Assembly: GCA_046760705.1 (NCBI GenBank)
Contig: JBHIER010000035.1
Span: 1-13,105 of the forward strand
DNA: 13,105 nt
Direction of reading: 5' to 3'
Source: JBHIER01 sp046760705 [NCBI: bacterium]
Lineage (GTDB): Bacteria > JBHIER01 > G020348925
A model generated the notes under the pieces. That model made no database searches and was not told where the DNA came from. It saw only the letters and a list, made by a program, of their open reading frames with translations. A program made the translations under genes and the position numbers. This document shows, piece by piece, positions 1 to 13,105 of this stretch (within the stretch, counting starts at the first letter, position 1; every line of letters starts with the position of its first letter).

Positions 1-12
1 GCACAAGTTCCA

Positions 13-56
13 CCGTAATGACAAGAGGATGTGTCATCCCTGCGAATGCAGGTGTC
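13..56. repeat. Partial copies of TGTCATTCC-type palindromic repeat
   Basis: CCGTAATGACA (13-23) resembles the right end CCGGAATGACA of the complete copies further on. A 21-bp left-end unit starting TGTCATCCCTGCG at 32-52 is repeated exactly at 68-88, 36 bp later. The first unit ends in GTCTCC rather than running into a full element, so this looks like stacked, partly deleted repeat copies at the window edge. Confidence 0.6.
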
Positions 57-67
57 TCCTCGGTGCC

Positions 68-157
68 TGTCATCCCTGCGAATGCAGGGATCTCCCGAAT
101 TTGAGGGGAGTCCTTCCTCTCAACAAAGGAGATTCCGGTATAAAAACCGGAATGACA
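68..157. repeat. Palindromic repeat, complete copy A (90 bp)
   Basis: The left end TGTCATCCC (68-76) and right end GGAATGACA (149-157) are near-perfect inverted repeats. A second nested pair lies inside, GGGATCTCC (87-95) against GGAGATTCC (128-136). The right end overlaps a small hairpin, ATGACAT (152-158) with ATGTCAT (165-171). The two nested arms match copies B and C in order. The element sits 37 bp upstream of the GIY-YIG nuclease gene. Confidence 0.75.
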
Positions 158-194
158 TCAATAAATGTCATGACTGCAGAATTATAATTCTTGG

Positions 195-506: not shown

Positions 507-510
507 TGCA

Positions 511-577
511 TGTTATTCCTGCGCCGCATCAAGCTTGTCCTCGACTCTGATCGGGGATGCGGGACAGGCGTCTCCGG
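511..577. repeat. Degenerate left half of the repeat with nested palindrome
   Basis: TGTTATTCCTG (511-521) is one base from the TGTCATTCCTG left end. It is followed by a perfect inverted pair CCGCATC (524-530) and GATGCGG (556-562), then GTCTCCGG (570-577), which resembles the internal arm. It begins 4 bp after the nuclease stop codon and abuts copy B. Confidence 0.55.
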
Positions 578-578
578 A

Positions 579-654
579 TGTCATTCCTGTGAATACAGGA
601 ATCTCCTGACTTGGAGGTATCAGACGGAGATTCCTGGACAAGCCAGGAATGACA
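579..654. repeat. Palindromic repeat, complete copy B (76 bp)
   Basis: The perfect 11-bp terminal inverted repeats are TGTCATTCCTG (579-589) and CAGGAATGACA (644-654). The nested inner pair is GGAATCTCC (598-606) and GGAGATTCC (626-634). Both inner arms are identical to those of copy C some 6 kb away, so this is a defined repeat family and not a chance hairpin. Confidence 0.82.
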
Positions 655-666
655 GGCAGCGAAGAC

Positions 667-718
667 GGAGACTCCGGCATACTGGGTTAAGCCCGGCACA
701 GCTCCGACCGGAATGGCA
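667..718. repeat. Degenerate right half of the repeat
   Basis: GGAGACTCCGG (667-677) and CCGGAATGGCA (708-718) match the inner right arm and right end of the complete copies with single changes. It lies directly after copy B and ends about 40 bp before pbpC. The span 507-759 holds only these repeats and no credible gene. Confidence 0.55.
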
Positions 719-759
719 GCTCAATGGAATGAACGATAAAACAGTCAAATGATACGAAT

Positions 760-1185
760 ATGAGACACCCAAAGTTTATAAAATCTCTGCTCTCCATTTT
801 CTTCTGTATTCTCATCTTTGCCCTTGGCTTTCGTTCCACACCTTACCTCTTTCCTGTCAAGAAGAAGGACATAGAACGGGAACGTTTCCATTCCGTTAAA
901 TTTTACGACAGGCATGGAGATCTTCTTCAGGAAGTACTTTCAAGAAATTCTACAAGATCTGTTCATGTGAACCTTGAGAATGTCTCGCCCTATTTCTTGA
1001 ATGCCATTATCGCCACAGAGGATAAAAACTTTTACCGACATGGCGGTGTCGATTACAAAGCTGTGCTCAGGGCTATGTATGAAAACCTGAAATCAAAGAA
1101 GATTGTTTCGGGCGCTTCCACAATTACCCTTCAATTGGCAAGACTGATACAACCCGGGGAAAGAACCTTTGTAAAAAAAAAGTAA
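760..1185 (+). CDS. pbpC: Penicillin-binding protein 1C, N-terminal fragment (glycosyltransferase part)
   Basis: This is the first 141 codons of a PBP1C-type bifunctional peptidoglycan synthase, which polymerises lipid II and cross-links peptides at the inner membrane. A short basic N-terminus leads into a membrane anchor (about residues 8-24). The GT51 glycosyltransferase motifs follow: TEDKNFYRHGGVD (86-98, catalytic Glu87) and GASTITLQLARL (118-129). The frame ends at TAA (1183-1185) straight after an A9 run. The next GT51 motifs continue in the -1 frame from 1182 (VKESYFAYRME). Without that frame the protein has only part of the glycosyltransferase and no transpeptidase. No clear Shine-Dalgarno precedes the ATG. 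Read together with the downstream part, the gene spans 760-2915. It may be a pseudogene, a sequencing error in a homopolymer, or a slippage gene. Confidence 0.85.
   Translation: MRHPKFIKSLLSIFFCILIFALGFRSTPYLFPVKKKDIERERFHSVKFYDRHGDLLQEVLSRNSTRSVHVNLENVSPYFLNAIIATEDKNFYRHGGVDYKAVLRAMYENLKSKKIVSGASTITLQLARLIQPGERTFVKKK
1173..1185 (+). other. A9 run with dnaX-like slippery heptamer followed by stop
   Basis: Nine A residues (1173-1181) are followed by G and then TAA. In the pbpC frame the codons are AAA AAA AAG TAA, so the heptamer A AAA AAG (1176-1182) is phased as in the classical bacterial -1 frameshift site of dnaX, with a zero-frame stop directly after it. Slipping back one base rejoins the GTA AAA GAA frame of the second half. 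A weak stem ATCCT (1190-1194)/AGGAT (1206-1210) lies downstream, and a GGGGA (1156-1160) upstream could act as a stimulator. Function is inferred only. Confidence 0.5.
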
Positions 1186-1208
1186 AAGAATCCTACTTTG
1201 CATACAGG

Positions 1209-2915
1209 ATGGAAGCAGGAATGGATAAGAAATCCATTCTTGAAGAATATATCAATCGACTTCCCATGGGAGGCAATCTTTATGGAATTGAAAGTGCAGC
1301 CAGGACTTACTTTGGTACACCCTCATCAGATTTGACCCTGGCCCAGTCGACATTTCTGGCATCCATACCCAATTCTCCAAACATATTCAATCCTTATCAT
1401 AATTTGAAAGAGATAAAAAAACGTCAAAGGATTGTATTAGAGAGGATGGTTGAACAAGGATCGATCCCGAAAGATCGGGTTGAGGGAGTCTTAAAGGAGG
1501 ATGTTTTGCTCAAACCGCAAAGTTCATCCTTCCTGGCCCCCCATTTCGTCTTTCACTTAATGGATATTCTCTCCAATGAGGCACAATCCGTGAAAACAAC
1601 TATTGATTTGGAATTACAAAAAATGCTTGCAGAACAGATCGACGAAATTCTCTCTCGGCTGAAATCCTTTCATGTCACGAACGCGGCCGCTATTCTTCTC
1701 GATAACTATACCGGAGAAGTTTTGGCTTACGTTGGCTCTGCAGATTATTTCAACACGGACAATGATGGTCAATGCGACGGTGTAAGGGCGCTCCGACAGC
1801 CGGGTTCAGCATTAAAGCCCTTTCTATATTTGTTGGCCATGGAAGAGGGATTTAACCCGGCCACAGTGATTTCCGACATTCCCACTCACTATAGCATGCC
1901 TCCCGGAATCTACAGCCCGAAGAATTATTCGGAGGACTTTCATGGGCCGATGAGATTGCGAGAGGCTCTGGGCAACTCCCTCAATGTGCCGGCTGTGAGA
2001 ACTCTGGCCAAGATCGGTATCGATCGATTTCTCAATCGATTGAGGGAGTATGGCTTCGCCTCACTGGATAAAGTGGTCCAGTCCACAGAAGGGAGGACTA
2101 TTTCAAAACCTCAATTCAATTATTTGATTGCAGATATTCTCAGCGACGCATTTGCTCGCACGGCTGAATTTGGATTCAATTCCATCCTGAATCTTCCCTT
2201 TCCCTGCTGCGTCAAAACAGGCACTTCTTTCCGCTTCTGTGATAATTGGACAGTCGGTTTCACCAGAGACTATCCCTTGGGCATCTGGGTAGGAAATTTT
2301 GATCATACACCCATGCTGAAGGTTTCGGGAGTCTCGGGTGCCGACCCCATATTCGCCAATATCATGCTTATGCTATATAATGATAAGAGATGGCCTGAGA
2401 AGTTCTCCCGGCCCGATGGGCTTGTGAAAGTACCCATCTGTCCGCTCTCTGGGAAAAAGCCCAAGGCACATTGCTCGGCCAGTATCGAAGAGTTGATTCC
2501 TGAAAGGGATTTAGCCGCATACGAGACTGGCAATTGTGACATGCATATTCAGAGAGGAAAAGAGATCGCCACAGTGGTTCCGGCTAAGTATCGGATTTGG
2601 GCAGACGAGCTCGGAATAGACACACAGAGGGCAGATTATCATAGAGAACACGAATTTCAGATTACGAATCCCAAAAACGGAGCAGTGTATTATCGACTAT
2701 CCAACCTTGCTCCTGAATTTCAGTCCATTAATTTCAGGCTCAATTGTTCAGCCCGAGAGCAAAGGGTAAAATGGTTTTTAGACAAGAACCCGATCCGGAC
2801 CACCTACCAAGACCATAGCTTCTTATGGCAGATAAAGCCTGGCCATTTTGTCCTGACGGTGGTCCCCGAGGGAAATGTCCATTTGCTCAGCAGTGTTGAA
2901 TTTGACGTGAGATAA
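1209..2915 (+). CDS. pbpC: Penicillin-binding protein 1C, C-terminal fragment (rest of GT51, transpeptidase, C-terminal domain)
   Basis: The frame is homologous back to about 1182; the ATG at 1209 is only the first start codon. In local numbering, the last GT51 motifs (SILEEYINRLPMGG, 9-22, and the AARTYFG segment, 30-36) lead into a penicillin-binding transpeptidase. It has SALK (200-203, nucleophile Ser200), SLN (257-259) and KTGTS (336-340). A C-terminal region of about 110 residues resembles the PBP1C C-terminal domain. SxN and KTG are only 79 residues apart, against about 120-130 in class A enzymes. The usual segment resembling 'LGGGEVTLLELTNAYA' seems missing around residues 285-300, so activity is doubtful even if the frameshift is bypassed. 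The usual alpha-2-macroglobulin partner gene is not next to it. The gene ends tail-to-tail with dprA, 17 bp apart, with no visible terminator. Confidence 0.85.
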   Translation: MEAGMDKKSILEEYINRLPMGGNLYGIESAARTYFGTPSSDLTLAQSTFLASIPNSPNIFNPYHNLKEIKKRQRIVLERMVEQGSIPKDRVEGVLKEDVLLKPQSSSFLAPHFVFHLMDILSNEAQSVKTTIDLELQKMLAEQIDEILSRLKSFHVTNAAAILLDNYTGEVLAYVGSADYFNTDNDGQCDGVRALRQPGSALKPFLYLLAMEEGFNPATVISDIPTHYSMPPGIYSPKNYSEDFHGPMRLREALGNSLNVPAVRTLAKIGIDRFLNRLREYGFASLDKVVQSTEGRTISKPQFNYLIADILSDAFARTAEFGFNSILNLPFPCCVKTGTSFRFCDNWTVGFTRDYPLGIWVGNFDHTPMLKVSGVSGADPIFANIMLMLYNDKRWPEKFSRPDGLVKVPICPLSGKKPKAHCSASIEELIPERDLAAYETGNCDMHIQRGKEIATVVPAKYRIWADELGIDTQRADYHREHEFQITNPKNGAVYYRLSNLAPEFQSINFRLNCSAREQRVKWFLDKNPIRTTYQDHSFLWQIKPGHFVLTVVPEGNVHLLSSVEFDVR

Positions 2916-2932
2916 GATTTGGAATATGACGC

Positions 2933-3811
2933 TTATAGGGCTTTCACAATAGTGTCAATGTCCCTTTCATCCTTAATCGGAATCCCCCCATTTGCGATCA
3001 ATTTCGCCGAACTTTCTACTTTCTCTGCGCAATCCTGCCATCGCACCGCATAAACTGGCCTCCCCTGACTTTTGGCTTTGACTGCCGCATCCATCGTCCC
3101 GCTGCTGTTCAAAGTGGCTTCAACGACGATCACTGCCCCCGACAAGCCTGTCACCACGCGGTTACGGGCCATCAACCGACCGACATTCACCGGCGCATTC
3201 ATCGGATATTCGGAAATGAGAGCCCCATTTAAAGAGATCTCCTCAGCCAATTCTAAGTTTTGTTTGGGATGGATAAAGTTCAATCCGCTCCCCAACACAG
3301 CCATCGTCCTCCCAGCGCCTTGCAAAGCTCCCCGGTGGCTGGCCGTGTCAATACCCAGGGCCAACCCACTTACGACCGTCACTCCTCTCTCGGCTAAAGC
3401 TTGACCCAATTTCGTCGCTACTTGCACGCCTTCGAACGTTGCCTGATGCGATCCGACGACGGACACAGAGAGATCGTCCTCTTCCTTTAAATGGCCTTTA
3501 ATATATAAGAGCGGAGGTGCATCATCAATCTGCCTCAGCCTTTTTGGGTAGCCCCCATCAAGAAGGGTCAAAACATCGACCCCGCTGTCGGTCAAAAAGA
3601 GTAGATGCTGCTCAATCTCCTCCAGCCGATCGGCAGCTCGCAAGATCTCTGAGGCTTTCGATGCGCCGATTCTGGGCAACTGAGTGAGCTCATCTACGGA
3701 AGCATCGAACACCGCCTGAGGTGAACCAAACCGCTCCATCAGGAGCCGAAAGGTTTTTGGCCCCACTCCGGCAGCCTCATGTAAAGCCACGACGTATTTG
3801 GCCCCTTGCAT
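2933..3811 (-). CDS. dprA: Divergent DprA/Smf (SLOG-fold) DNA-processing protein
   Basis: DprA binds single-stranded DNA and loads RecA in transformation and repair. This 292-residue protein has an N-terminal helix-hairpin-helix-like part (about 5-60; LPRIGASKA). The DprA Rossmann core follows: VVGSHQAT (118-125), VVSGLALGIDTASHRGAL (146-163), AVLGSGL (171-177), LISEYPM (198-204), RNRVVTGLS (216-224) and VVEATLNSSGTMDAA (229-243). It departs from the norm at the usual FPxRNR (here LMARNR) and at the VPG after the last strand (here VRW), and it stops without the C-terminal winged helix. The ATG at 3811 has AGAGGA about 8 nt upstream. It lies 13 bp after the recQ fusion, so the two are almost certainly co-transcribed. 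That partner suggests a role coupled to helicase and phosphoribosyltransferase activity rather than competence alone, which is inference. Confidence 0.85.
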   Translation of the reverse strand: MQGAKYVVALHEAAGVGPKTFRLLMERFGSPQAVFDASVDELTQLPRIGASKASEILRAADRLEEIEQHLLFLTDSGVDVLTLLDGGYPKRLRQIDDAPPLLYIKGHLKEEDDLSVSVVGSHQATFEGVQVATKLGQALAERGVTVVSGLALGIDTASHRGALQGAGRTMAVLGSGLNFIHPKQNLELAEEISLNGALISEYPMNAPVNVGRLMARNRVVTGLSGAVIVVEATLNSSGTMDAAVKAKSQGRPVYAVRWQDCAEKVESSAKLIANGGIPIKDERDIDTIVKAL

Positions 3812-3824
3812 TCACAGATTCCTC

Positions 3825-6695
3825 TTAAACACTATGGATAGTCTTGGTCAAAGTTAATACGTAGACCTTATTTGCACCAGCTCCTTTTAACTCTTTTGTG
3901 CATTCGTTTACAGTCGCCCCCGAATCATAGAGATCGTCGAAGATCAGGATCTTCTTGTCCCTCACCAAATTCTTTTTTTCGATCCGGAAAGCACCGGCTA
4001 CGTTCTTCCTTTTCAAAACCTCGTTCTCAAAATCCTTCTGCGGAAAGGTCGTTCTGACTTTTTTTAGAATATCAAACCCGGCAGGGATTTTTGTTTTATT
4101 ATTCAATTCTTCGGTCAGGAGTAAAACAGGGTCATAGGGTCTATCTTTGATCGAAGGAGGAACTGGAACAATGTAATCGACCTTCAAAAAGTCTCGGTGC
4201 CTCCGCAAAAATTCTGTCACCTTTTCCACCAGTGCACCGACCACCTCTCGTTTGAGCTCGTATTTGAACCGATGGACTAAATCACCCATCTCCGTCCGTT
4301 TCCACTCAGACCCGACAAATCGGCTGTTAAAATCCAGAGCATACCCCTGATCGAAAAGCCCTTTGAGCGGTTTAGGCCGCGCGGAGGCTAAAAAGCTTTC
4401 TATCTCCGCCTCAATGTCTTCAACTGGAGCAGCTCTTGTAGGTTCAATTCTCCGCACTCGAGGAAGGGGCTTAACTTTCCTAATCTTTTCTGTCTCATCA
4501 GATCTGTCAGCAAATTCAGGTTCGGTTCTCTCACTGGCCGCTCTTTTAATATCTTCGCAAACAAAACGGATTTGATCGTACGTAATTTTTCTTGGTAACC
4601 GGTCTTTTATCGGTTTAAGTCTCTCTATCCCGACCCTTTCGGCAACGGAACGAATCCTACTCTGCACATCAGGATCCAACACTTCGTCTAATATTATGCG
4701 CCCTTGGCCAATCAGAGTGACGATGTGTCCGTTAACGGTCGAGAGAGCCAGTCCGCGTTCTCTGGCAACTTCCCCCGGAGATAGGCCTTGTCTGAAAAGC
4801 TTGTACGTGGACTCAACTGTTTCTTCCGAATAAGCTTTTCTTTTGGCCTCTCTTTCACGATTTCGAAATTTTTCGACAATCAATCTACTCAAATCCACAT
4901 CCACTGGTAACTTCTCTTTTAACGTTTTCATACCGAGGGGTGTCAACATTAAGACAGGGTATTCACCCCCAATCACCTTCAAAAGACGTTTTTCTATGAG
5001 TTGGTTCAGAACCTGCATCAACTGTTCCGTGGTGAAATTGGGCAGTGCATTGTAAAACTTCGAGCGGTGGTAATGAAATTGAAGTATTTCTTTGGCCTTG
5101 GAGCCCTTTAATATTTGAATGATTTTCCCTTTACCAACCCGTGGTCTCACGGCGGCGATCGAATTCAATATTAGATGGACAAGCACGTCGCCATCTGAGA
5201 CAGCCCGCTTTTCTGGAGTGGCTTGGGGTCCTTTTTCAGGGTGGCAGTTATCGCAGCAAAATTCCGGCAGCGAGATCAACCTCTCGCCAAAATAATTGAG
5301 AATGAACCTCCGGCGGCAGCTATTGCTTTCGGCATAATTTATCATCCGATTCAGCTTGCGATATTTGCTGTTTTTTCGCCGCCAGAGATATTTTAGGTCG
5401 ATGGGGAGCTGTTGGCCTTTCAGGTTTGGGTCGGACAATTCAATAGACATCTCCCGGAGGATATCGGGCAACCTCTTCAGTGCCTCTATTCTCTCCAACT
5501 CCCTGATGGCCACCCGCACCTTGGTGTCGCTGAAACCAGTTTTCGCCTCGACGATTTCAGGCAAAACCCGGACTCTCTTTCCCTCCGTAAAGCTCTGAAG
5601 GGTCTCATAGACCCTAATAATCTCCTCCGGTAAGAGACAGCTATTCTCGATGGCCCATTCCCGCAAGGCCCGATCCTGAGGAGAATAGAAAAGCAGGCAC
5701 CGCGACCTTTGGCCGTCACGTCCGGCCCGACCTGCCTCCTGATAGTATGCTTCCAGGCTATCAGGGATGTCGTAATGAATCACCCAGCGAATATTGGCCT
5801 TATCGATCCCCAGGCCGAAGGCCACAGTGGCTACCACCACTCTTATTTCACCCCTCATAAAAGAGTCTTGAACCCGATTCCTGTCTTCGGCTTCTAACCC
5901 CGCGTGATAGAAATGTCCATCGATGCTCAAAAAATCTCGCAGGAACTCAACCACTTCCTCGCTCTCTCTTCTGGTTCCTACGTAGATTATGCCCGCCCCG
6001 GGCAGTTGATCCATTAACTTTTTCAATCGCTTCAGCTTCGATCGCTCATCCGGAGTGTAAAACACCTCAAAAGAAAGATTTGGCCGGTCAAAACCAGTAA
6101 TGACTCTGTCAGCCTTTTCGATATTCAATTGTCTGAGAATATCCTCTTGAACCTCTGAGATAGCCGTGGCCGTCAGGGCCAGAACTCGCGGATGACCGAG
6201 TTTGGGAATCGAATCGCGTAAACAGAGATAGTCGGGCCGAAAATCGTGGCCCCACTGGGAGATGCAATGGGCCTCGTCGATCACAAAGAGCGAAATCTTG
6301 GCCTTGGCCAAACCATCGAGAAAGGATTGGCTGCGAAACCGCTCCGGAGCGATGTAAACCAGCTTATATCGCCCCTCAACCAGTCCCTCGATTCTTCTCT
6401 TTTGCTCTCCGAAATTCAAAAGCGAACTGATATGAGTTGCCTCTACCCATTCGTTTTCTATCAAGGCATCGACTTGATCCTTCATCAAAGCCACCAGTGG
6501 AGAGACGACCAGCGTAATGCCCTCAAAAAGAAGCGACGAAAGCTGAAAGCACAGAGATTTGCCCCCGCCGGTGGGCATGATGGCCAACACATCCCTGCCG
6601 CCCAGAATCTTTGTGATCACCTCCTCCTGCCCCGGAAGGAAATCGGTATGTCCGAAACGTTGGGTGAGTAAGCCTTTTATATCTTTTGACTCCAT
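3825..6695 (-). CDS. recQ: RecQ-family DNA helicase fused to a ComF-like phosphoribosyltransferase domain
   Basis: A 956-residue protein, against about 600 for ordinary RecQ. The superfamily 2 helicase core has Walker A PTGGGKS (41-47), DEAH (140-143), ALTATA (173-178) and motif [13 protein letters not shown] (319-329). Zinc cysteines 460, 480, 481 and 484 have a WRN-like CCxxC arrangement. A winged-helix RQC region follows (about 495-600), then a helix-turn-helix HTH_40-like segment (about 622-712) and a charged linker (720-780). The last 170 residues are a type I phosphoribosyltransferase related to ComFC, with VPVPPS (843-848), an RTTFPQ segment (881-886) and the PRPP loop [13 protein letters not shown] (916-928). 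The zinc ribbon that usually precedes ComFC is absent. RecQ unwinds DNA 3'-5'; the fused domain's role is unknown. The gene heads a unit with the dprA-like gene. The Shine-Dalgarno is weak and a TATAAT lies 27 bp upstream. Confidence 0.93.
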
Positions 6696-10720: not shown

Positions 10721-11150
10721 TCACCTCAGCCTCTCCCGGTCTGAGGTGACAAGAGCGTCATCGAAGATGAGAAAGCCCTTCGCTCGCAGCAGTTTTTCGG
10801 CCAGAGCAAGCCTCAGAGCCAAAAGAAGCTGATCCTTTGACCCCGCGCTCAGGGCGGCAAATTCCCACTCCCTTCCCGAAATATCCCTTGCTCGGAGAGA
10901 AAATCCGAAAAGCTCAACCGAGGTGTACCTGCCTCCAGTGAAATCACTGAAATATTTGCTGGCTTTCCCCTTGGTAATGATCTCTTCCAAGATCACATCC
11001 GACGCCCCCAGAAGATTCTGAAAAATCTCCTTCACTTTCGCCCCAGCGGCTCTCAAAACCCTGGCCTCATTCAATTCTCTCTCTATCTCCTCCCTCTTGC
11101 AAAAGGCCTTTTCCAGCCTCTCACAGCCGAATTTGGCCCGAAGCTTGTCT
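10721..11150 (-). pseudogene. Remnant of SMC/YhaN-like AAA ATPase, C-terminal part only
   Basis: The frame is open and protein-like from just after the rmuC stop at 11151. It starts with a charged coiled-coil-like stretch (GCERLEKAFCKREEIEREL). A globular part carries the ABC-type signature LSAGSKDQLLLALRLALAE and a Walker B FLIFDDALVTSD. These match the C-terminal ATPase half of Rad50/YhaN-like DNA-repair ATPases. There is no ATG or GTG in the frame; the first possible start is TTG at 11074, which gives 117 residues. The Walker A half and most of the coiled coil are missing. The protein also stops at TGA right after RERLR, about 30-60 residues short of where relatives end. It cannot bind ATP by itself in the usual way. 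It is probably a deletion relic of a gene that followed rmuC. Confidence 0.72.
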
Positions 11151-12234: not shown

Positions 12235-13105
12235 TCAATTTTTGTGGAACATCCTAAACTCCCTCAAAATCTCCTCCAGCTCACTTTCGAGGTTGTACTC
12301 TTCGCCAGTTTCAGACTCTGTGCCAGTCTTAACCTCAGCCATAAAGATGGGCTCTTTAACTTCAGGTTTTTTGTCCTTAATCATATAAAGGATGCTCATT
12401 TTAGAAGGAACATTTGGAAAGATCCCCCGAGGCAGAGAGACCACAGCCTTAACTCTGCAGGTGTCAAAGATATGCTTGTGAAGATACTGAAGCTGTACAT
12501 TCGCTAATGTTCCATCAGGCACAATCAGGCAAATTTTGCCACCGTCTCTGGCCAGTTGTATTGCCCGTTGAATAAACAATGGGGCGTTTTGTAAGTTCCC
12601 CTTTTTGTGCTTCTCCAGGGGGAAATTGCTTCTTAACTCATCATCGTAACCCAGGTTGTAGTCAGCTCCGCCCGGAGGGTTGCTAATAATTAAATCAAAA
12701 CTTTCTTCTGCAATGACATCTCCTAAGTCGTCTTTTTCCCAACTGTGCACTCTATCACTGCAAAGCCCGTTATGGTGAAAGATGTTGAACACTTCCTGTC
12801 TTCCAGGCAGAAGAAGATCGATGAAAGTCTTTGCCGTTGAGACGGCAAACTGGTCAACATGACAGGCGAAAAGATTCGTTTCTAAAAATTGGGATTTATC
12901 AATTCTATCCTCCAGATAGCCTAATATCCCGCCGCAAAAGCCACCGGAACCGCAAGCAGGGTCGATGACCCTCTTGGGCAACCGCCTTGCCTTGAAAATC
13001 TTCTTGCGACTTCTTTTGATCAATGTCGCTCTCAGAATATCATTTATAAGAGAAATAACCTCATCATCGGTCTTAAATTTCGGACGTTTACTCAACCTTA
13101 ACGCC
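12235..13105 (-). CDS. N6-adenine DNA methyltransferase (type I HsdM-like), 5' end beyond the window
   Basis: A class I SAM-dependent adenine methyltransferase of the N6_Mtase family. The SAM-binding motif I is DPACGSGGF (45-53, counted from the TTG at 13095), and the catalytic motif IV region is FDLIISNPPGGAD (133-145). Later strands GKICLIVPDGTL (186-197) and VVSLPRGIFPNV (218-229) are typical of HsdM. The frame is open through 13105 with no stop, and HsdM proteins are about 500 residues, so the N-terminal part is probably outside the window. The TTG at 13095 is not trusted as a start. Motif IV normally reads NPPF, NPPY or NPPW; here the aromatic is Gly, so catalysis may be impaired. No hsdS or hsdR is visible. 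rmuC follows after 22 bp. Confidence 0.9.
   Translation of the reverse strand, partial: ALRLSKRPKFKTDDEVISLINDILRATLIKRSRKKIFKARRLPKRVIDPACGSGGFCGGILGYLEDRIDKSQFLETNLFACHVDQFAVSTAKTFIDLLLPGRQEVFNIFHHNGLCSDRVHSWEKDDLGDVIAEESFDLIISNPPGGADYNLGYDDELRSNFPLEKHKKGNLQNAPLFIQRAIQLARDGGKICLIVPDGTLANVQLQYLHKHIFDTCRVKAVVSLPRGIFPNVPSKMSILYMIKDKKPEVKEPIFMAEVKTGTESETGEEYNLESELEEILREFRMFHKN

What the first reader, a model, noticed from the sequence alone, without database searches (positions are those of the whole stretch)
2933..6695. RecQ helicase fused to a phosphoribosyltransferase, paired with a DprA/SLOG protein
One 956-residue protein carries helicase, RQC, helix-turn-helix and a ComF-type phosphoribosyltransferase with an intact-looking PRPP loop. 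A DprA-fold protein follows 13 bp later. ComF and DprA are both known from natural transformation, RecQ from processing recombination ends, and SLOG and phosphoribosyltransferase domains have been proposed in nucleotide-centred conflict systems. No other com gene is visible. The set could be a compact system that unwinds incoming or damaged DNA, senses or makes a nucleotide, and hands single strands to DprA. Fusion and pairing are seen; function is inferred.
Basis: partly seen in the sequence, partly recalled or inferred. Interest (0 to 1): 0.78.

Follow-up and report, generated by a model that had tools for sequence, protein, structure and literature searches.

The report
RecQ helicase–PRTase toxin with DprA partner
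A DNA-unwinding enzyme fused to a probable nucleotide-handling toxin domain sits beside its likely tamer protein, an arrangement already known from bacterial toxin–antitoxin and phage-defence systems but here apparently assembled separately, from different parts.

Summary
Confirmed: a 956-aa RecQ–RQC–HTH_40–phosphoribosyltransferase (PRT) protein is followed 13 bp later by a 292-aa DprA. The arrangement is known in kind: RecQ-like helicase–PRT plus DprA is RqlHI/PsyrTA, and PRT plus DprA is ShosTA. But this copy is not of the PsyrT clade. Its helicase falls among ordinary RecQs (AU test, p 3.7e-7), its DprA is not PsyrA (p 1.9e-4), and its PRT carries a motif seen in 21 of 21 tested members of its own group but in none of 10 PsyrT, 1 ShosT and 30 ComF PRTs. 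In G416's phylum 19 of 20 such PRT genes lie beside dprA (of the 20, 17 are unfused, two fused to RecQ, one to WD40 repeats). Seven of seven unfused PRTs examined elsewhere are followed by a homologous small protein, one copy of which models as a SLOG fold. Best reading: a PRT–SLOG toxin/neutraliser core that captured an ordinary RecQ independently of RqlH. Toxicity, neutralisation and defence are inferred, not tested.

The parts
3825..6695 (-). RecQ-RQC-HTH_40-PRT fusion protein, 956 aa (proposed toxin/effector with DNA-engaging N-terminal part)
6144..6635 (-). DEAD/DEAH helicase domain, residues 21-184 (GGGKS at residue 43, DEAH at 140)
5712..6038 (-). Helicase_C domain, residues 220-328 ([11 protein letters not shown] at 318)
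5244..5378 (-). RecQ zinc-binding domain, residues 440-484 (C460, C480, C481, C484)
4893..5198 (-). RQC domain, residues 500-601; not found by Pfam in the two PsyrT-type proteins scanned (L003, L038)
4560..4820 (-). HTH_40 domain, residues 626-712
3828..4376 (-). Phosphoribosyltransferase domain, residues 774-956, with N-terminal motif [10 protein letters not shown] (779-788) and PRPP loop DDLYDSGAT (920-928)
3812..3824 (-). 13-bp gap between the two genes, begins GAGG (ribosome-site-like)
2933..3811 (-). DprA-family protein, 292 aa: N-terminal HHH plus DprA/SLOG domain (75-275), about 17 residues after it, so no room for a C-terminal winged helix; proposed neutraliser

Best explanation
A toxin/antitoxin-like, probably anti-phage or anti-mobile-DNA module that works like RqlHI/PsyrTA and ShosTA but was assembled separately. 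SHOWN by sequence: a PRT domain with intact PRPP loop, of a family recurrently encoded next to a SLOG-fold protein, is fused to the C-terminus of an ordinary RecQ helicase (with RQC and HTH_40), and a DprA of non-PsyrA type follows 13 bp downstream on the same strand. INFERRED: the PRT domain is the effector; it uses PRPP and disturbs the purine/PRPP pool or damages DNA, as reported for ShosT and RqlH. DprA normally holds it inactive by binding the PRT domain, as RqlI does with RqlH. The RecQ part brings the effector to, or senses, recombination or replication intermediates such as those of invading DNA. When DprA is drawn away, for example onto single-stranded DNA, the PRT is released and growth stops. 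The RecQ part is replaceable: most relatives in one phylum have PRT plus DprA alone, and one has WD40 repeats instead.
For: Domains and gene order. PRT fold with PRPP loop: (ShosT with PRPP-Mg 8zvc Z 13.3, rmsd 3.2, 173 aligned). DprA side: solved ShosA 9vzo matched by sequence, E 1e-18, though other DprAs match better. Separate origin of the helicase part and of the DprA part. PRT motif in 21 of 21 tested versus 0 of 41 others. Pairing: 19 of 20 PRT hits in the phylum have DprA adjacent; 7 of 7 unfused PRTs examined elsewhere have a homologous SLOG-like neighbour (fold of one copy). Same two genes in G416 with extra RecQs and DprAs. Window DprA is 40% identical to the one DprA found in G076, the nearest of 386 genomes by PcrA, although PcrA is 76, FabH 72 and RmuC 84%. 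GC3 of the pair is 0.53/0.57 against 0.65-0.72 in FabH, GatC, PcrA and RmuC. Published function of the analogues: PMC4670107 (abstract, passages, section 15), PMC9122126 (passages), PMC12593503 (one passage of a review).
Against: No function was tested. Neighbours of 18 related loci are mostly ordinary genes, not a defence island. In G407 the fusion is not directly followed by DprA. In 3 of 13 PsyrT-type loci no DprA lies in the stretch fetched, so a DprA partner is not obligatory for such fusions. E. coli NILS69 work saw no detectable protection by PsyrTA, only a growth defect (PMC12409345, passages). PADLOC's ShosA match is not diagnostic: the ordinary DprA of G076 scores higher (229.7) than the window's (192.8). 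PRT placement is not decisive by AU test: window with PsyrT p 0.381, with ComF p 0.245. The DprA group of window, L196 and L262 has support 17 only. PBP1C next door also has low GC3 (0.49).
Confidence: 0.62

Rival explanations
1. A housekeeping recombination/repair module: RecQ with a PRT domain that only binds nucleotides to regulate unwinding, and DprA as the RecA loader for its single strands. No toxin, no defence.
For: The helicase is of ordinary RecQ type with RQC. The DprA scores above the dprA equivalog cut-off and AU does not reject it among ordinary DprAs (p 0.308). The window neighbours include PcrA, RmuC and FabH. Most neighbours of related loci are not defence genes.
Against: The PRT belongs to a family that also occurs without helicase next to DprA or a small SLOG-like protein. 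G416 has further RecQs and DprAs besides. The pair is absent from 18 kb around FabH-PcrA-RmuC in G076, and GC3 differs from those flanking genes.
Confidence: 0.22
2. A true PsyrTA/RqlHI system by descent that gained RQC and HTH_40.
For: PADLOC PsyrT 469.7 bits; same gene order; AU does not reject PRT kinship with PsyrT (p 0.381).
Against: Helicase kinship rejected, p 3.66e-07; DprA kinship with PsyrA rejected, p 0.00019. The best stretch of the PsyrT match is the helicase (3-500), and an E. coli plasmid RqlH scores 1018.9 over its whole length.
Confidence: 0.04
3. A competence (natural transformation) module with a ComF-like domain.
For: The fold is nearest to ComF 7p0h (Z 16.7, rmsd 3.0, 168 aligned); AU does not exclude ComF plus window (p 0.245); some ComFC proteins are reported to interact with DprA (PMC9005727, passages).
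Against: No zinc finger; outside the 30 ComF rows, support 99 for the non-ComF PRT group; no com gene recognised among the ten window ORFs scanned.
Confidence: 0.06
4. A mis-joined or frame-shifted assembly of separate genes.
For: The neighbouring PBP1C gene is split at a run of nine A, so the sequence may contain errors.
Against: L195 and L196 have the same fusion and domain order; one GTG at 747 is the only start-like codon in residues 720-799.
Confidence: 0.02

Closest known systems
RqlHI / PsyrTA (RecQ-like helicase-PRTase toxin, DprA-like antitoxin; Russell and Mulvey 2015 PMC4670107; Sberro 2013 seen only as cited)
   Same: Helicase N-terminus, PRT C-terminus, DprA-family gene directly downstream.
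   Different: Window helicase is an ordinary RecQ with RQC and HTH_40; helicase and DprA are not of the PsyrT/PsyrA clades; PRT has the G-x4-G-x-[AVT]-[LYM]-D motif that 0 of 10 PsyrT PRTs have; DprA 292 aa versus 462 in the E. coli plasmid copy L003.
ShosTA (PRTase plus DprA, phage defence; PMC9122126; PDB 8zvb-8zvd, 8zva, 9vzo)
   Same: PRT plus DprA pair; PRT model matches ShosT with PRPP-Mg at Z 13.3.
   Different: Effector is fused to a helicase; the one ShosT row kept lies elsewhere in the PRT tree, on a long branch. The AU test of window with three ShosA rows (p 0.000119) is weak evidence: two rows are long-branched and the third (L167, broken) groups with PsyrA.
ComF/ComFC
   Same: PRT fold.
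   Different: No zinc finger; not with the ComF rows; no com gene recognised nearby.
Unfused PRT plus SLOG-like pairs (Agrobacterium, Xanthomonas, Neisseria, Listeria, E. coli records; G295, G319)
   Same: Same PRT motif; PRT followed by a partner whose one modelled copy has a SLOG fold.
   Different: No helicase; the partner is a small SLOG-like protein, not DprA, without a Pfam, NCBIfam or PADLOC family in the copies scanned, apart from an HTH tail in the Agrobacterium and Xanthomonas copies.

Membership tests
PsyrTA/RqlHI | RecQ-family helicase fused to C-terminal PRT | tested here: met
PsyrTA/RqlHI | DprA-family gene directly downstream | tested here: met
   13 bp
PsyrTA/RqlHI | Helicase belongs to the PsyrT/RqlH clade | tested here: not met
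   41-row tree, AU p 3.66e-07; same placement in 58-row tree
PsyrTA/RqlHI | Partner belongs to the PsyrA/RqlI clade | tested here: not met
   37-row tree, AU p 0.00019, (one of the 13 PsyrA rows, L168, has no RecQ-PRT seen beside it)
PsyrTA/RqlHI | PRT kin to PsyrT PRT | tested here: inconclusive
   AU p 0.381; motif absent from 10 of 10 PsyrT PRTs
PsyrTA/RqlHI | Toxin activity neutralised by partner | not testable with these tools
   -
ShosTA | PRT gene and DprA gene adjacent | tested here: met
ShosTA | PRT is a stand-alone protein | tested here: not met
   fused to RecQ
ShosTA | Partner is ShosA | tested here: inconclusive
   PADLOC 192.8 bits, but the ordinary DprA of G076 scores 229.7; AU p 0.000119 against three ShosA rows, two long-branched and one misplaced
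ComF | N-terminal 4-Cys zinc finger | tested here: not met
   PRT part has one cysteine
ComF | PRT lies in the ComF clade | tested here: inconclusive
   outside it (99), but AU p 0.245
Ordinary RecQ | RecQ family score (TIGR00614 cut-off 219.8) | tested here: met
   433.2 bits
Ordinary RecQ | recQ equivalog score (TIGR01389 cut-off 640.2) | tested here: not met
   512.8 bits
Ordinary DprA | TIGR00732 cut-off 191.15 | tested here: met
   195.4
Ordinary DprA | Ortholog of the lineage's DprA | tested here: inconclusive
   40% to G076 DprA while flanking genes are 72-84%; own genome not held

The most novel reading that the evidence does not exclude
A family of immune modules built on one PRT effector and one SLOG-fold partner (DprA or a small uncatalogued SLOG protein), to which different sensors are fused: ordinary RecQ (here, independently of RqlH), or WD40 repeats. 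The SLOG partner reads DNA or a nucleotide and gates the PRT, so the RecQ-PRT/DprA plan has evolved at least twice because it works.
Probability: 0.4. Interest if true: 0.72.

Novelty: new variant of a known kind. Interest (0 to 1): 0.52.

Why it matters
In the papers seen, RqlHI/PsyrTA is one fused helicase–PRTase lineage with a DprA-like antitoxin. If an unrelated RecQ was joined to a related PRT beside another DprA, the combination itself is meaningful: it points to the PRT–SLOG pair as the core and the helicase as an exchangeable targeting or sensing part. That gives a direct test of an open question, namely what the helicase does in RqlH, by comparing unfused, RecQ-fused and WD40-fused relatives. 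It also adds a small SLOG-like partner family that the libraries searched do not name.

Tried and rejected
Finding close relatives by peptide patterns: viral contigs gave one generic helicase fragment, then none twice, and genome contigs gave five helicase fragments of 27-47% identity, so the window's species stays unknown. PcrA placed it nearest G076 (76%) among 386 genomes, the only genome held of its phylum. G076 has no RecQ match at E <= 1e-20. A further stretch of G076 was fetched but not analysed.

PADLOC matches as proof of membership were dropped after the control. A competence reading and descent from PsyrT were considered and set aside. Promoter and terminator scans were no better than shuffles. 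Literature: searches (10 of 10 used); none of the listings or passages I saw describes an RQC-bearing RecQ-PRT fusion with DprA. The 2012 RqlH paper is not held; Sberro 2013 and Pu 2025 were seen only as cited by others.

Limits of counts. Rows dropped before trees: duplicates and near-duplicates, and ShosT row L165 (very long branch). In the helicase trees two rows without a PRT (L106, L130) lie inside the PsyrT clade. In one search L168 was put under PsyrA though no RecQ-PRT was seen beside it, and L167 under ShosA though its genes are broken. One search used 13 of the 19 loci. The neighbour scan took up to three genes a side within 3.5 kb of 18 loci and used 76 of the 83 listed. The PRT motif was derived from the same sequences it was counted on.
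Full report
Observation. The window holds a 956-aa ORF at 3825-6695 (-) and a 292-aa ORF at 2933-3811 (-), 13 bp apart in the direction of transcription. Pfam finds DEAD, Helicase_C, RecQ zinc-binding, RQC and HTH_40 domains above their cut-offs. The C-terminal PRT passes the cut-off only when scanned alone (27.8 against 26.3). The second protein is DprA with an N-terminal HHH and no room for a C-terminal winged helix. Helicase motifs and the PRPP loop DDLYDSGAT are present. An AlphaFold2 model of residues 766-956 from 18 sequences has mean pLDDT 92.8. Its best solved matches are ComF 7p0h (Z 16.7, rmsd 3.0, 168 aligned) and ShosT with PRPP-Mg 8zvc (Z 13.3, rmsd 3.2, 173 aligned).

Known kind. 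The arrangement is described. RqlH is a RecQ-like helicase with a C-terminal PRTase; RqlI has a DprA homology region; the two form an operon, bind each other apparently through the PRTase domain, and RqlH is genotoxic without RqlI; many bacteria, above all Gram-positives, have RqlH alone (PMC4670107: abstract, passages, section 15). PMC9122126 (passages) reports DprA+PRTase as a phage-protective pair and names DprA homologues as antitoxins in shosTA, syrTA and rqlHI. PMC8790059 (passages) lists PsyrTA with a RecQ toxin. PMC5512222 (passages) notes a PRTase fused to an SFII helicase coupled to DprA. A review passage (PMC12593503) says ShosT acts as PRTase and pyrophosphatase, disturbs purine pools, and is countered by the DNA-binding ShosA. 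Against a general defence role, PMC12409345 (passages) saw no detectable protection by PsyrTA in E. coli NILS69, only a growth defect.

Not the same lineage. In a 41-row helicase tree the window falls with ordinary RecQs across a 100/100 branch, and holding it with 12 PsyrT rows is rejected (AU p 3.66e-07); two PRT-less rows lie inside the PsyrT clade. In a 37-row DprA tree it lies with ordinary DprAs and two ShosAs across a 100/99 branch; with 13 PsyrA rows it is rejected (p 0.00019), with ordinary DprAs it is not (p 0.308). In a 52-row PRT tree it joins seven unfused PRTs (99/87), though AU rejects neither PsyrT (0.381) nor ComF (0.245). In a 62-row PRT tree the PsyrT, SLOG-paired, DprA-paired and RecQ(RQC)-fused PRTs form one group, support 99, apart from 30 ComF rows and the one ShosT row kept. 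A motif G-x4-G-x-[AVT]-[LYM]-D occurs in 7 of 7 unfused SLOG-paired PRTs, 11 of 11 DprA-paired PRTs tested and 3 of 3 RecQ(RQC) fusions, and in 0 of 10 PsyrT PRTs, 0 of 1 ShosT and 0 of 30 ComF (the motif was chosen from these sequences).

Survey. A PsyrT profile over 386 genomes (two candidates scored per genome) gave at least 13 matches spanning the profile. In 10 of 13 a DprA gene is adjacent, in 3 of 13 none was found in the stretch fetched. None of the 13 gave a blastp match (E <= 1e-3) to the window's RQC-HTH_40 segment. An E. coli plasmid RqlH (L003) and the G073 copy (L038) were scanned with Pfam and lack RQC and HTH_40; L038 instead has HRDC after the PRT. The window's PRT profile in the phylum of G057 (84 genomes) hit 20 genomes at E <= 1e-24. 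DprA is adjacent in 19 of 20, at -11 to 122 bp in the 18 intact pairs measured. Seventeen of the 20 PRTs are unfused (two of them broken or short: G057, L212), two are fused to RecQ-RQC-HTH_40 (L195, L196) and one to WD40 repeats (L194).

The same-architecture relatives. L196 (G416) has the fusion (1036 aa; 43% identity overall) followed 28 bp later by a DprA (306 aa, 43-46%). L195 (G407) is cut at its start by the contig end, and its next gene is a DNA methylase at the other contig end. A DprA grouping with that of L196 (support 100) lies on another G407 contig behind a DNA methylase and a DpnII-like endonuclease. Whether these two contigs adjoin is not shown. Both fusions carry a HEAT-repeat stretch that the window lacks (below the cut-off in L196). 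Helicase: window+L195+L196 form one group, support 84. PRT: holding the three together raises the likelihood. DprA: grouped, but with support 17. G416 has two further RecQ-type genes and two further DprAs.

Partner theme. All 7 unfused PRTs examined from named records and from G295 and G319 are followed by one homologous protein of 173-286 aa. Of four copies scanned with Pfam, two match nothing and two only by an HTH tail; the copies put to PADLOC and NCBIfam matched nothing else. A model of the G319 copy from two sequences (mean pLDDT only 68.2) matches SLOG-fold proteins best, all tied: YpsA Z 10.9 (rmsd 3.1, 136 aligned), DprA 3maj 10.5 (3.2, 138), ShosA 8zva 10.0 (3.4, 145). So the PRT is linked to SLOG-fold partners beyond DprA.

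Context. The window's genome is not held. By PcrA the nearest of 386 genomes is G076 (76%; FabH 72, RmuC 84), where FabH-PcrA-RmuC are in the same order and no RecQ-PRT or DprA lies in the 18 kb fetched. G076's only DprA match is 40% identical to the window's, and G076 has no RecQ match. GC3 of the pair (0.53, 0.57) is below FabH, GatC (named by eye), PcrA and RmuC (0.65-0.72) but nearer PBP1C (0.49). These fit an acquired module but do not prove it. Defence context is mixed: 3 of 5 annotated plasmid relatives lie by restriction, CBASS-like or toxin genes, 2 of 5 do not, and 76 neighbours of 18 loci in G057's phylum are mostly ordinary genes with few strong PADLOC matches.

Mechanism and verdict. 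Shown: domain make-up, gene order, active-site motifs, family relations, recurrent PRT-SLOG pairing, a RecQ source other than PsyrT's. Inferred: co-transcription, PRT toxicity, DprA neutralisation, DNA-sensing by RecQ. Filed as a new variant of a known kind: it works like RqlHI/ShosTA, but fails the clade tests for PsyrTA.

Noticed in passing
window 760-2915 (+): PBP1C gene read as two ORFs (760-1185 and 1209-2915), broken near a run of nine A (1173-1181): assembly error or pseudogene.
   Followed up: partly
window 10721-11074 (-): 117-aa ORF between pcrA and rmuC that reads by eye like the C-terminal end of an SMC/RecF-type ABC ATPase (no Pfam hit). G076 has only 89 bp there. Possible gene remnant.
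   Followed up: no
window 12235-13104 (-): N-6 DNA methylase cut by the window end; best NCBIfam match MAD2 of a methylation-associated defence system at 82 bits, far below its cut-off of 720.
   Followed up: no
window 2-187 and 510-752 (+): Two ORFs share the odd string CHPCECR/CHSCEYR, perhaps an interspersed repeat.
   Followed up: no
L194 7321-10506 (-): 1061-aa WD40-repeat protein fused to the same PRT, followed by DprA.
   Followed up: partly
L132 3824-4378, L133 4029-4589, L012 3456-4004, L004, L006, L002, L007: Small SLOG-like protein directly after the PRT in 7 of 7 loci; no Pfam/NCBIfam/PADLOC family in the copies scanned apart from an HTH tail in two.
   Followed up: partly
L038 3728-6247 (+): RecQ-zinc-PRT-HRDC order: PRT lies inside the RecQ instead of at its end.
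   Followed up: no
L263, L265-L269: A further DprA class (311-331 aa, 37-39% to the window's) present as an extra copy in several genomes of G057's phylum; no PRT found in the stretches fetched.
   Followed up: no
L262 1-2830 and L195 2935-4242 (G407): Restriction-modification-type genes next to both the fusion and the matching DprA, perhaps inserted between them.
   Followed up: no
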